Positions 4,045 to 10,370 of a stretch of DNA of 11,217 bases are shown piece by piece. Numbering within the stretch: the stretch's first letter is position 1; every line of letters starts with the position of its first letter. The notes beneath the pieces are model-generated. The model was not told the DNA's origin, searched no databases, and was given only the letters and a program-made list of their open reading frames with translations. This stretch comes from Calditrichia bacterium (lineage in GTDB: Bacteria; Calditrichota; Calditrichia; RBG-13-44-9), in contig JALXCH010000586.1 of assembly GCA_026991005.1 (NCBI GenBank), positions 1-11,217 of the forward strand, written 5' to 3'. A program made the position numbers and the translations under genes.

Positions 4045-5196
4045 ATGATACGACCTCATGGTGGGACATTGGTGAATCGATATGTAGCAGAAGAACAGAA
4101 TAATGAATTTGTGGAGAGGGCAAAGAGCTTGCCCAGGATTACCCTTGATGATAAAAACATTTCCGATCTGGAAATGATTGCCTCCGGTGCCATGAGTCCC
4201 TTAACGGGTTTTATGAAAAAAGCGGATTATACTTCTGTGGTGAACGAGATGCGCCTCTCCAACGGATTGGTGTGGAGTATTCCCATTACCCTGGCTGTAA
4301 ACAAAGAGGTGGCGGATCGGATTGATGGTCATGGGGAAGTGGCGCTGGTGGATCATCAGGAACATTTGCTGGCTATTATGAATGTAGAAGAAGTGTATCA
4401 ATACGACAAAGCAGTGGAAGCGGAGAAAGTGTTTCGCACCACGGACGAAAAACATCCCGGGGTGGCTTATGTTTACCAGCAGGGCGATTACCTTCTGGGT
4501 GGCCCCATTACCATGATTAACCGTCCCCGGCACACGGATTTTGTGGAATACCGTCGCGATCCGGCAGAGACTCGCCGTATTTTTCAGGAAAAAGGCTGGG
4601 AAACAGTGGTTGCCTTTCAGACGCGCAATCCCATTCACCGGGCGCATGAGTATCTGCAGAAATGCGCGCTGGAAATCGTTGACGGTTTGCTCATTCATCC
4701 TCTGGTGGGACGCACCAAATCGGATGACATTCCCGCAGAAGTGCGCATGAAGAGCTACGAAGTGTTGCTGGAAAAATACTACCCGAAAGACCGGGTACTG
4801 CTTTCCGTTTTTCCCGCTGCCATGCGCTATGCCGGTCCCCGAGAAGCAATTTTCCACGCCCTGGTTCGCAAGAACTACGGTTGCACCCACATTATTATCG
4901 GACGTGACCATGCCGGTGTGGGCAATTATTACGGCACGTACGATGCCCAGCATATCTTCAAGGAATTCAAACCGGAAGAACTGGATATCACTCCGCTTTT
5001 CTTCGAACATGCTTTTTATTGTACTGAATGCGGCAACATGGCCAGCGCCAAAACCTGTCCGCACGACAGCAGTGCTCATGTATTCCTGAGCGGAACAAAA
5101 GTGCGCGAAATGCTCTCCCGCGGCGAACTTCCCCCCAAAGAATTCACCCGTCCGGAAGTAGCACAACTGCTTATGGAAGCGATGAAAAAAGATTAA
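4045..5196 (+). CDS. sat: Sulfate adenylyltransferase (ATP sulfurylase), homomeric Sat type
   Basis: Sat converts sulfate and ATP to APS and pyrophosphate, the first step of sulfate activation; CysC then makes PAPS. The 383-aa protein is full length. Active-site motifs are QTRNPIHRAH (192-201), GRDHAG (286-291) and the C-terminal SGTKVR (349-354). A probable zinc site, C326, C329, C338 and H340, matches many prokaryotic Sat proteins. I chose ATG 4045 because GAAGGAG lies just upstream and MIRPHGG is the usual Sat opening. A longer reading from TTG 3970 would add a lysine-rich, low-complexity 25-residue tail without a ribosome site. The 125-bp gap after the PHP gene is AT- and purine-rich with no clear terminator, so co-transcription is plausible. 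In sulfate reducers the same enzyme works in dissimilation, but CysC nearby favours PAPS supply. Confidence 0.96.
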   Translation: MIRPHGGTLVNRYVAEEQNNEFVERAKSLPRITLDDKNISDLEMIASGAMSPLTGFMKKADYTSVVNEMRLSNGLVWSIPITLAVNKEVADRIDGHGEVALVDHQEHLLAIMNVEEVYQYDKAVEAEKVFRTTDEKHPGVAYVYQQGDYLLGGPITMINRPRHTDFVEYRRDPAETRRIFQEKGWETVVAFQTRNPIHRAHEYLQKCALEIVDGLLIHPLVGRTKSDDIPAEVRMKSYEVLLEKYYPKDRVLLSVFPAAMRYAGPREAIFHALVRKNYGCTHIIIGRDHAGVGNYYGTYDAQHIFKEFKPEELDITPLFFEHAFYCTECGNMASAKTCPHDSSAHVFLSGTKVREMLSRGELPPKEFTRPEVAQLLMEAMKKD

Positions 5197-5658
5197 TTTT
5201 GAATTAATAATTTTGAATTTTGAATTATATAATATTCATTTTTATGAAAGATAATATTATACTAAATAAAACCTTTGATTTTGCTGTAAAGATTGTTGAA
5301 TTATGTAATATATTGCAGCAAGATAAAAAGGAATATATTTTATCCAGGCAATTGTTACGGTCTGGTACATCTATTGGAGCAAACTGTGAGGAAAGTGTTG
5401 CTGCACAATCGCGTAAAGATTTCATAAATAAACTTTATATCGCACTTAAAGAATCGCGCGAGACGAGGTATTGGCTTCGCTTGTTAAAAGCAACTGGTTA
5501 TTTAAAGGAACAAAATGAATTATTTAGTGAAATTGAAGAAATTATAAAAATATTAACATCAATAATTAAAACTACACAAGAGAAGGATAAAACCGAATGA
5601 TTTATAACGAATGTGTCTTTACTCAATTCAAAATTTAAAATTCAAAATTCAAAATTAA
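5193..5658 (+). mobile_element. Candidate cassette: four-helix-bundle gene bracketed by inverted AT-rich arrays
   Basis: The left array (about 5193-5225) is built of TTTTGAATT units. The right array (about 5624-5658) has the same units inverted (AATTCAAAA). The outermost 13 bases match perfectly as an inverted repeat: TTAATTTTGAATT at 5193-5205 and its complement at 5646-5658. The left end overlaps the sat stop codon and the right end stops two bases before the permease ATG. The block thus fills the gap exactly, without breaking either neighbour. Mobility is inferred from the terminal inverted repeats and the AT-rich contents; no transposase is encoded. Confidence 0.5.
5244..5600 (+). CDS. 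Four-helix-bundle protein (23S rRNA intervening-sequence / S23 family)
   Basis: The protein is 118 aa, the usual size for this family of small all-helical proteins first found encoded by intervening sequences in 23S rRNA genes. Hallmarks are SRQLLRSGTSIGANCEE (34-50), AAQSRKDF (53-60) and ALKESRETRYWLRLL (67-81). The family is thought to form pentameric bundles with a basic surface; the Avd accessory protein of diversity-generating retroelements has the same fold. Its job outside rRNA genes is unknown. I prefer ATG 5244 over TTG 5220 because the extra residues are low-complexity and conservation begins after the ATG. No Shine-Dalgarno is visible. The gene is clearly more AT-rich than sat and the permease on either side, which suggests later insertion. 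Confidence 0.9.
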   Translation: MKDNIILNKTFDFAVKIVELCNILQQDKKEYILSRQLLRSGTSIGANCEESVAAQSRKDFINKLYIALKESRETRYWLRLLKATGYLKEQNELFSEIEEIIKILTSIIKTTQEKDKTE

Positions 5659-5659
5659 A

Positions 5660-9919: not shown

Positions 9920-9923
9920 GATA

Positions 9924-10045
9924 TTAGGGGACATAAGGGGCATAAAGGCATAAAGGCATAAAGGCATAAAGGCATAAAGTGTATAAGGTGTATAAGGTGT
10001 ATAAGGTGTATAAGGTGTATAAGGTATATAGGGGTAATAAGGGGA
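9924..10045 (+). repeat. Purine-rich tandem array, right arm of the MntA/HepT cassette
   Basis: Octamers GGCATAAA (about 9939-9978) are followed by five nonamers GTGTATAAG (9979-10023), then GTATATAGGGGTAATA. Read outward from the genes this is the same order as the left arm in reverse complement: 8-mers, 9-mers, then a GGGTAATA-like end. The two arms therefore form a long imperfect terminal inverted repeat of roughly 110 bp. Confidence 0.85.
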
Positions 10046-10370
10046 ATAAGGAAATAAGGAAATAAGGAAATAGGGATATAGGGAAATAAGGGATTAGGGA
10101 AAGAGGAAAGAGGAAAGAGGAAAGAGGAAAGAAGAAAGAAGATAATGGGGGCATAAGGACATAAGGACATAAAAGCATAAAGAAATATAGGGATAAGGAA
10201 ATAGTAAAGAGGAAATAGTAAGAAATTAGAAATACATAAATGCATAAATTAGGAAAAAGAAAATAAGAAATAGGGGAATAAGGAAATAGGGGATTAGTGG
10301 AAAGAGAAAAAAGTAAAGAGGAAGAAATTATAAATACATAAATGTATAAATAGGAAATAGAAAAGAGTAT
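10046..10370 (+). repeat. Extended cytosine-poor low-complexity tract
   Basis: The tract contains GGAAATAA units (10046-10070), AGAGGAA units (10100-10132), ACATAAGG units (10150-10170) and further degenerate copies to 10370. From 9974 to 10151 there is no C at all on the + strand. No gene is present; minus-strand ORFs here only translate the repeats. The segment 10315-10350 repeats 8844-8879. Confidence 0.85.

What the first reader, a model, noticed from the sequence alone, without database searches (positions are those of the whole stretch)
5193..10370. Unrelated small genes each bracketed by inverted arrays of short tandem repeats
Three separate cassettes share one plan: a four-helix-bundle gene (5193-5658, AATTCAAAA units), another four-helix-bundle gene (7447-8206, GCATARR heptamers) and an MntA/HepT pair (about 8935-10045, 8-mers and 9-mers). 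The repeat unit is different each time, but in every case the right array is the reverse complement of the left. No transposase is encoded within them. This suggests a class of nonautonomous units, or a common insertion or retention mechanism based on the folded RNA or DNA stem, as in 23S rRNA intervening sequences, where a stem flanks a gene of this same protein family. The shared plan is seen directly; mobility is inferred.
Basis: partly seen in the sequence, partly recalled or inferred. Interest (0 to 1): 0.8.

Follow-up and report, generated by a model that had tools for sequence, protein, structure and literature searches.

The report
Small genes bracketed by matching heptamers
Across many bacterial phyla, genes for one small four-helix-bundle protein tend to sit between two mirrored stacks of a seven-letter DNA repeat whose spelling tends to follow the protein, which suggests an overlooked class of genetic element that carries both a protein and the repeat it recognises.

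Summary
In other genomes inverted short-repeat arms flank 46 of 80 4HB genes, 8 of 17 in mixed phyla and 25 of 29 in Gammaproteobacteria, against 14 of 520 control ORFs and 0 of 30 HepT genes. Arrays are mostly 7-mers (69 of 95 flanks). 4HB proteins at least 50% identical, at unrelated sites in different genomes, tend to share the unit on the same strand (none of 3000 permutations; weaker). Gene-less arrays match a 4HB arm of their own genome in 19 of 35 cases, other genomes' arms in 84 of 1981. Three sites in one genus are full in some species and empty in others. Best reading: a REP/RAYT-like element, 4HB gene plus cognate heptamer arms, of which 23S rRNA intervening sequences may be a special case. 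Binding and movement are inferred. The MntA/HepT cassette does not generalise; its arrays resemble 4HB#2's.

The parts
5193..5226 (+). 5' arm of cassette 1: array of AATTTTG / TTTTGAA units directly at the sat stop codon
   Evidence: same unit in L105 and L106, whose 4HB proteins are 55% and 50% identical
5244..5600 (+). 4HB#1, four-helix-bundle protein, 118 aa
   Evidence: PF05635 E 6.9e-27, TIGR02436 E 1.3e-32, PDB relative 2rld E 3e-32
5625..5658 (+). 3' arm of cassette 1: CAAAATT units, reverse complement of the 5' arm, ending at the ATG of the permease
7448..7566 (+). 5' arm of cassette 2: GGGCATA / GAGCATA heptamers in two runs (7448-7493 and 7536-7566)
7564..7615 (.). dispersed hairpin next to the cassette-2 array; second copy at 2913
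7680..8102 (+). 4HB#2, four-helix-bundle protein, 140 aa
   Evidence: PF05635 E 7.1e-26
8144..8206 (+). 3' arm of cassette 2: TATGCYY heptamers, reverse complement of the 5' arm
2839..2915 (+). gene-less (solo) array of the 4HB#2 unit between the APS-kinase and PHP genes, adjoining a copy of the same hairpin
   Evidence: (score 69 against the 4HB#2 5' array); the corresponding junction in L001 is 61 bp (hit coordinates)
8669..8695 (+). gene-less array of the 4HB#2 unit
   Evidence: score 47
8930..9042 (+). array left of MntA/HepT (TATACCC, CTATGTC units, C-rich strand)
9061..9534 (+). MntA-like antitoxin nucleotidyltransferase
   Evidence: NF047752 E 4.4e-20
9524..9919 (+). HepT-like HEPN RNase toxin
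   Evidence: NF047751 E 4.6e-27
9945..10060 (+). array right of MntA/HepT (GGCATAAA, GGTGTATAA units), mirrored match to 8930-9042

Best explanation
Cassettes 1 and 2 belong to a widespread class of small elements: a 4HB (IVP/S23) gene between two arms of tandem heptamers, with the G-rich strand usually in the 5' arm and its reverse complement in the 3' arm. Shown here: the bracketing, its specificity against HepT and ordinary ORFs, the usual period of seven, the strand polarity, the tendency of the unit to follow the protein subfamily across genomes and phyla, gene-less copies of the same unit in the same genome (in one genome also as tight inverted pairs), and sites that are full in some species and empty, or filled by another 4HB, in sister species. 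Inferred: the 4HB protein recognises its own heptamer, as DNA or as the stem the arms form in DNA or RNA, and this recognition keeps or moves the unit, as RAYT proteins are thought to do with REP repeats. The family searches found no nuclease or polymerase domain in it, so movement would need a host or partner enzyme; a reverse transcriptase is a candidate because the related Avd protein serves one. The stem would also allow RNase III to cut the unit out of operon messages, as it does from 23S rRNA.
For: Bracketing: 46 of 80 4HB loci inverted (score >=30) vs 16 of 80 direct and 0.2-0.8% of shuffles; Gammaproteobacteria, scored last with the same threshold, 25 of 29 inverted vs 3 direct; mixed phyla 8 of 17 vs 3 direct. 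Specificity: 25 of 38 4HB vs 14 of 520 other ORFs in the same 40 regions (Fisher 3e-24); HepT 0 of 30. Period: 7-mers in 69 of 95 4HB flanks with an array vs 0 of 22 GxxExxY flanks, where 14 of 22 are 9-mers. Polarity: 5' arm G>C in 65 of 70 representatives. Unit follows protein: arm similarity of pairs at >=50% protein identity 23.5 vs 14.1+-0.6 permuted, opposite-strand control roughly flat; 3' arms beyond the stop codon only, 19.3 vs 11.4+-0.5; 40 further elements 17.4 vs 14.8+-0.7 (flank homology was not screened there, only pairs of new elements at 92% identity or more were dropped). Gene-less copies: 19 of 35 dispersed arrays match a same-genome arm vs 84 of 1981 array-genome comparisons with others; genome G187 has inverted TAACTGA pairs 12-48 bp apart and a 4HB with the same unit in its arms. 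Empty sites A, B, C; replacement of 4HB plus arms at site C in G131 and at the L275/L283 site. Protein conserved under DNA divergence in two orthologous pairs: 100% amino-acid identity at 94.5% and 91.5% DNA identity of gene plus flanks.
Against: No experiment and no observed transposition. No target-site duplication seen at sites A-C. 34 of 80 4HB loci lack inverted arms at the threshold, and 16 of 80 have direct arrays. In the contiguous 400-kb sample of G055 only 2 of 6 4HB genes had inverted arms while 5 of 6 had direct ones. Arm co-variation between orthologues was clear at site C (own pairing 40.5 vs cross pairing 30.3) but not in the other eight orthologous sets, where arms are shared by descent or decay. 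Some close proteins have different units (L423/L264, 74% identical, score 11), so the coupling is loose. At site C the 4HB frame of G158 is interrupted by a stop (sequence), and other loci have stops too. Loci were the best-scoring family hits, not a random sample.
Confidence: 0.6

Rival explanations
1. RNA-level intervening sequence: the arms are kept because they pair in the polycistronic message, so that RNase III removes the 4HB unit from operon transcripts, as in 23S rRNA. The unit is tolerated or selected as an mRNA processing site, with or without mobility.
For: 4HB genes lie between co-directional neighbours more often than other genes (69 of 84 vs 508 of 757) and 60 of those 69 are co-oriented with them (tests). 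At sites B and C the unit sits between the stop codon and the next ATG. The Coxiella IVS is cut by RNase III in its stem (PMC4990558, passages).
Against: It does not by itself explain why the unit follows the protein subfamily at unrelated sites, why period differs between 4HB and GxxExxY, or why gene-less arrays share the unit. Clear co-change of arms was seen in 1 of 9 orthologous sets. Co-orientation is nearly as common for ordinary genes between co-directional neighbours (431 of 508). Not exclusive with the best explanation.
Confidence: 0.4
2. Mutational by-product: replication slippage makes heptamer arrays anywhere between genes and template switching in quasi-palindromes copies one arm onto the other; the 4HB gene is a passenger.
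For: Copy number differs between orthologues (right-arm 16-mers in G131 and G147). At site A the gene-less site of G157 holds an expanded AGCTGTC/AGCTATC array where G147 and G119 have only a short AGCTATCAGCT stretch. Site C arms changed together.
Against: Array density is 31.7 per 100 kb within 500 bp of a 4HB gene vs 2.4 elsewhere in these (mostly 4HB-centred) regions, before removing duplicates. A neutral process would not tie unit, strand and period to a protein family nor give 0 of 30 for HepT.
Confidence: 0.12
3. Ordinary transposon ends: the arms are terminal inverted repeats moved by a transposase in trans, with any small gene, including MntA/HepT, as cargo.
For: Empty sites; inverted ends; in the window a MntA/HepT pair is also bracketed, with a mirrored match of about 115 bp.
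Against: No end sequence shared by all elements and no target-site duplication seen at sites A-C; units differ between subfamilies; HepT 0 of 30 elsewhere; of 22 rows of large indels in the syntenic blocks, the 20 without a 4HB (some the same event seen twice) score at most 32 inverted, the two with a 4HB score 60.
Confidence: 0.06

Closest known systems
23S rRNA intervening sequences with an S23p/IVP ORF
   Same: Same protein family (PF05635), terminal inverted arms around the ORF; in Coxiella tandem heptamers (GACAGAT) upstream of the ORF with strain-variable copy number and a 28-bp stem (PMC4990558, passages read).
   Different: Those described lie inside rRNA genes. No Rfam hit was found in the window, and among 20 4HB loci searched the only hits were three tRNAs, no rRNA.
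REP repeats and RAYT transposases (REPINs, BIMEs)
   Same: A gene flanked by two cognate repeats in inverted orientation, with further copies or doublets of the repeat dispersed in the same genome (PMC2817692, abstract and passages).
   Different: RAYTs are IS200/IS605-type transposases and REPs are palindromes; here the protein is a four-helix bundle with no catalytic domain found and the repeat is a tandem heptamer array.
Dispersed bacterial heptamer repeats (TAACTGA in Beggiatoaceae and others; GGGAATC in Xanthomonas)
   Same: Intergenic heptamer arrays, in Xanthomonas often as inverted pairs (PMC4679880, passages; PMC4692102, passages). One genome here with dispersed TAACTGA arrays has a 4HB with that unit in its arms.
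   Different: The terms 'four helix' and 'S23' have 0 occurrences in those two papers; a TAACTGA-binding protein was only proposed in PMC4679880. Neither Beggiatoaceae nor Xanthomonas was tested here.
Avd / bAvd accessory protein of diversity-generating retroelements
   Same: Homology to PF05635 reported (PMC10053308, passages); Avd works with a reverse transcriptase.
   Different: No template/variable repeat pair was looked for, and no reverse transcriptase is among the window genes I examined.

Membership tests
23S rRNA intervening sequence (IVS) | ORF of the IVP/S23 family | tested here: met
   PF05635 for both window genes
23S rRNA intervening sequence (IVS) | complementary termini around the ORF | tested here: met
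   window cassettes 1 and 2; 46 of 80, 8 of 17, 25 of 29 elsewhere
23S rRNA intervening sequence (IVS) | location within an rRNA gene | tested here: not met
   no Rfam hit in the window; no rRNA in 20 further loci; flanks in the window are protein genes
23S rRNA intervening sequence (IVS) | excision from RNA by RNase III without ligation | not testable with these tools
   needs RNA data
RAYT/REP system | gene bracketed by inverted cognate repeats | tested here: met
   units correlate with protein
RAYT/REP system | dispersed copies of the repeat in the same genome | tested here: met
   19 of 35 vs 84 of 1981; G187
RAYT/REP system | IS200/IS605-type tyrosine transposase | tested here: not met
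   Pfam and NCBIfam find only PF05635, TIGR02436 and PRK12275-type models in the two window proteins
RAYT/REP system | short palindromic repeat with a head tetranucleotide | not tested
   repeat seen here is a tandem array; no search for the head motif was made
Transposon with terminal inverted repeats / MITE | shared end sequence among copies | tested here: not met
   between relatives at unrelated sites such as L170/L177 and L164/L168 DNA homology stops within about 50 bp of the 4HB domain, apart from the unit
Transposon with terminal inverted repeats / MITE | target-site duplication | tested here: inconclusive
   none visible at sites A, B, C, judged by eye on three sites
MntA/HepT toxin-antitoxin as regular cargo | inverted arrays around HepT in other genomes | tested here: not met
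   0 of 30 inverted, 8 of 30 direct

The most novel reading that the evidence does not exclude
A bacteria-wide class of selfish or domesticated elements in which a non-enzymatic four-helix-bundle protein recognises a subfamily-specific heptamer, and the gene plus its inverted heptamer arms move, or exchange at fixed intergenic slots, while gene-less arrays spread in the genome. It would cover 23S rRNA intervening sequences and published orphan heptamer repeats such as TAACTGA. GxxExxY nuclease-like genes with 9-mer arrays would be a second, parallel system.
Probability: 0.4. Interest if true: 0.93.

Novelty: categorically new. Interest (0 to 1): 0.85.

Why it matters
The IVP/S23 four-helix-bundle family is common (74 of 82, 45 of 61 and 57 of 274 genomes) and, in the paper I read passages of (PMC4990558), has no known function. 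Tying it to a cognate heptamer gives a direct, testable hypothesis (specific binding to its own repeat), offers a source for orphan heptamer arrays that others have catalogued, and places the rRNA intervening sequences inside a wider class. If the unit truly follows the protein, this is a natural set of protein-repeat pairs readable from genomes, comparable with RAYT/REP but built on a different protein and repeat type.

Tried and rejected
MntA/HepT as a member of the class: rejected as a rule (0 of 30), though the window's own mirrored 115-bp match is left unexplained. GxxExxY (PF13366) showed inverted arrays in 21 of 30 but also direct ones in 14 of 30, with 9-mers of a recurrent CAC.GA-like motif (by eye) and no strand polarity (9 of 21 G>C): kept as a parallel lead, not pursued. 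A covariation test on a plain alignment of site C was uninformative because the arms shift register; the own-versus-cross pairing matrix replaced it. A first version of the flank counts used wrong coordinates for some minus-strand loci and was replaced. One search stopped half-way on a script error and its missing part was rerun. Structure of 4HB#1 from a single sequence was poor (pLDDT 57) and was not used. Xanthomonas (GGGAATC) could not be tested: none of the 29 Gammaproteobacterial loci had a GGGAATC array. Literature searches for a prior report of this association (plus on intervening sequences and on RAYT) listed no paper that, from the listings and passages I saw, describes it; no paper was read whole, and subscription journals and preprints are not in that library.

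Dropped rows: L091 and L108 (below the family cut-off) were left out, and five loci with short flanks dropped from the remaining 85 to give 80; L377 was left out; L369 was not recounted. Of 36 de-duplicated dispersed arrays one lay in a genome without arms, giving 35. Thresholds (score 30, 28, 26) were chosen by me after seeing the first loci; the Gammaproteobacteria set was scored afterwards with the same threshold. Statements on RNase III, quasi-palindrome template switching and Avd are recalled unless a call is given.
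Full report
WHAT IS IN THE WINDOW. The window is a sulphate-assimilation and polysaccharide neighbourhood (epimerase, NusG-like, APS kinase, PHP, sulphate adenylyltransferase, permease), probably from a relative of Calditrichota/KSB1 bacteria (best relative of the permease: Calditrichaeota J075, 66% identity). No own genome is held. Two genes are four-helix-bundle proteins of PF05635. Each lies between short-repeat arrays, the right one being the reverse complement of the left. 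A MntA/HepT pair lies between a third, longer mirrored pair. More arrays lie outside any cassette.

IT GENERALISES FOR 4HB GENES. I scored the two flanks of 4HB genes in other genomes for inverted and direct similarity. With 300-bp flanks and score >=30: 15 of 26, 17 of 26 and 14 of 28 inverted (46 of 80), against 4, 9 and 3 direct (16 of 80) and 0.2-0.8% of dinucleotide shuffles. In cyanobacterial, Gammaproteobacterial, Planctomycete and Omnitrophota genomes 8 of 17 were inverted and 3 direct (neither of the two Planctomycete loci was inverted). In a separate draw of 274 Gammaproteobacterial genomes (57 with the family), 25 of 29 loci were inverted and 3 direct. Within 40 4HB-centred regions, 25 of 38 4HB genes but 14 of 520 other ORFs pass for inverted similarity; for direct similarity 9 of 38 and 22 of 520 (250-bp flanks). 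HepT genes give 0 of 30 inverted and 8 of 30 direct. A contiguous 400-kb sample of one genome gave a less favourable picture: 2 of 6 4HB inverted, 5 of 6 direct; other genes 8 of 386 inverted, 26 of 386 direct. All loci were the best-scoring hits of each search, not a random sample.

PERIOD AND POLARITY. Of 95 4HB flanks with an array, 69 have period 7; of 22 GxxExxY flanks with an array none do, 14 having period 9. Read in gene direction, the 5' arm has more G than C in 65 of 70 representative elements, with 4 the other way, and in 25 of 27 of the Gammaproteobacterial set.

THE UNIT TENDS TO FOLLOW THE PROTEIN. For 97 elements with inverted arms, arm similarity on the same strand rises with protein identity while the opposite-strand control stays roughly flat. 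Restricting to 70 representatives and pairs from different genomes, pairs at >=50% identity average 23.5 against 14.1 (sd 0.6) under permutation, none of 3000 reaching it. Using only 3' arms downstream of the stop codon gives 19.3 against 11.4 (sd 0.5), again none of 3000. With 40 further elements the effect is smaller but present, 17.4 against 14.8 (sd 0.7), none of 500 (flank homology was not screened in this test). Examples: AATTTTG in window cassette 1, L105 and L106; AGAATTCAGGAG-like arms in L424, L117 and L276, from three searches centred on different phyla. Counter-examples exist (L423/L264, 74% identical, unit different).

GENE-LESS COPIES. After removing duplicates, 19 of 35 arrays more than 500 bp from any detected 4HB gene match an arm of a 4HB in the same genome, against 84 of 1981 comparisons with other genomes (16 of 32 without the window). 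One genome (G187), from the family of the Thiorhodococcus genome G162, is one of 2 of 77 searched that carry TAACTGA x3. At four of its six array places the array forms an inverted pair 12-48 bp apart with no 4HB gene, and the genome has a 4HB gene whose arms have the same unit and polarity. In the window, the arrays at 2832-2920 and 8660-8700 and those around MntA/HepT resemble the 4HB#2 unit.

FULL AND EMPTY SITES. L001 has the same operon with a 190-bp sat/permease gap, no array and no 4HB, so cassette 1 is a difference between relatives. In a genus of which eight genomes are held: site A is full only in G131, empty in six others, and unresolved in G154 because of contig ends. Site B is full in G131, G147 and G155 and empty, with 43-64 bp between the flanks, in G119, G154, G156, G157 and G158. 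Site C is empty in G155 and G156, where the two genes are a few bases apart; it holds one 4HB in G119, G147, G154, G157 and G158 (in G158 with a stop inside the frame), and a different 4HB, 52-53% identical, with different arms in G131. At the L275/L283/L289 site gene and arms also differ between species. Of 22 rows of large indels in the same blocks, the 20 without a 4HB (some the same event seen twice) score at most 32 inverted, the two with a 4HB 60. In two orthologous pairs the 4HB protein is unchanged while gene plus flanks are 91.5% and 94.5% identical in DNA; other pairs differ more.

HOW IT MOST LIKELY WORKS. The pattern, a gene between inverted cognate repeats with further repeats in the same genome, is that of RAYT/REP (PMC2817692, passages), but the protein is of the S23/IVP family, for which homology to the retroelement accessory protein Avd is reported (PMC10053308, passages). 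In the Coxiella 23S rRNA intervening sequence the same family sits behind tandem heptamers in an element with a 28-bp terminal stem cut by RNase III (PMC4990558, passages). I therefore read the cassettes as a general form of that element: protein plus its own repeat. Binding, movement and any partner enzyme are inferred. Insertions lie mostly between co-directional genes and in their direction (69 of 84, 60 of 69), which suits an RNA-processing role, but ordinary genes show similar co-orientation (431 of 508). Clear co-change of arms was found at one of nine orthologous sets, so strict selection on pairing is not shown.

THE MNTA/HEPT CASSETTE. Its arms match each other over about 115 bp, more than I would expect of two unrelated solo arrays, but its polarity is opposite to nearly all 4HB elements scored and the HepT genes sampled elsewhere lack the plan. 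I take it as a toxin-antitoxin pair lying among gene-less arrays of the 4HB#2 family, and leave the mirror match open.

NOVELTY. The searches named in Tried and rejected listed no paper describing the association. By membership tests it is neither an rRNA intervening sequence (not in rRNA) nor a RAYT (no transposase), though it may work like both. I rate it categorically new as a system, with the mechanism unproven.

Noticed in passing
window 2913-2964 and 7564-7615: A dispersed hairpin (TCCCGACTAAARCGCAAACATCCCTGTTTGCTTTCGGGATGA) occurs twice, each time at the right end of a GCATA array.
   Followed up: partly
L179-L208: GxxExxY (PF13366) genes have 9-mer arrays around them, inverted in 21 of 30 and direct in 14 of 30, with a recurrent CAC.GA-like motif and no strand polarity.
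   Followed up: partly
L149, L174: A GxxExxY-like and a DUF559-like gene (L149) and an AAA/DUF4143-like gene (L174) also had inverted, and as strong or stronger direct, repeats in the control set (names recalled from the sequences, not searched).
   Followed up: no
window 10777-11217: A weak IS256-type transposase match on the minus strand follows what looks like an interrupted HEPN-like gene downstream of the MNT gene at 10447-10773 (HEPN assignment by eye).
   Followed up: no
L144, L146, L147, L150, L166, L171, L173: In 7 of the 40 regions fetched around 4HB genes the contig ends within about 400 bp of the gene, as expected if arrays or variants break assembly.
   Followed up: no
L270, L275, L276, L285 and others: A shared TTTTGTAAGGAATT...GTCTTA sequence recurs upstream of several 4HB genes and elsewhere in the genus of G131, perhaps a promoter or another dispersed repeat.
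   Followed up: no
L311 (G157) site A: The empty site carries an expanded AGCTGTC/AGCTATC array where sister species have only a short AGCTATCAGCT stretch, within a terminator-like hairpin.
   Followed up: partly
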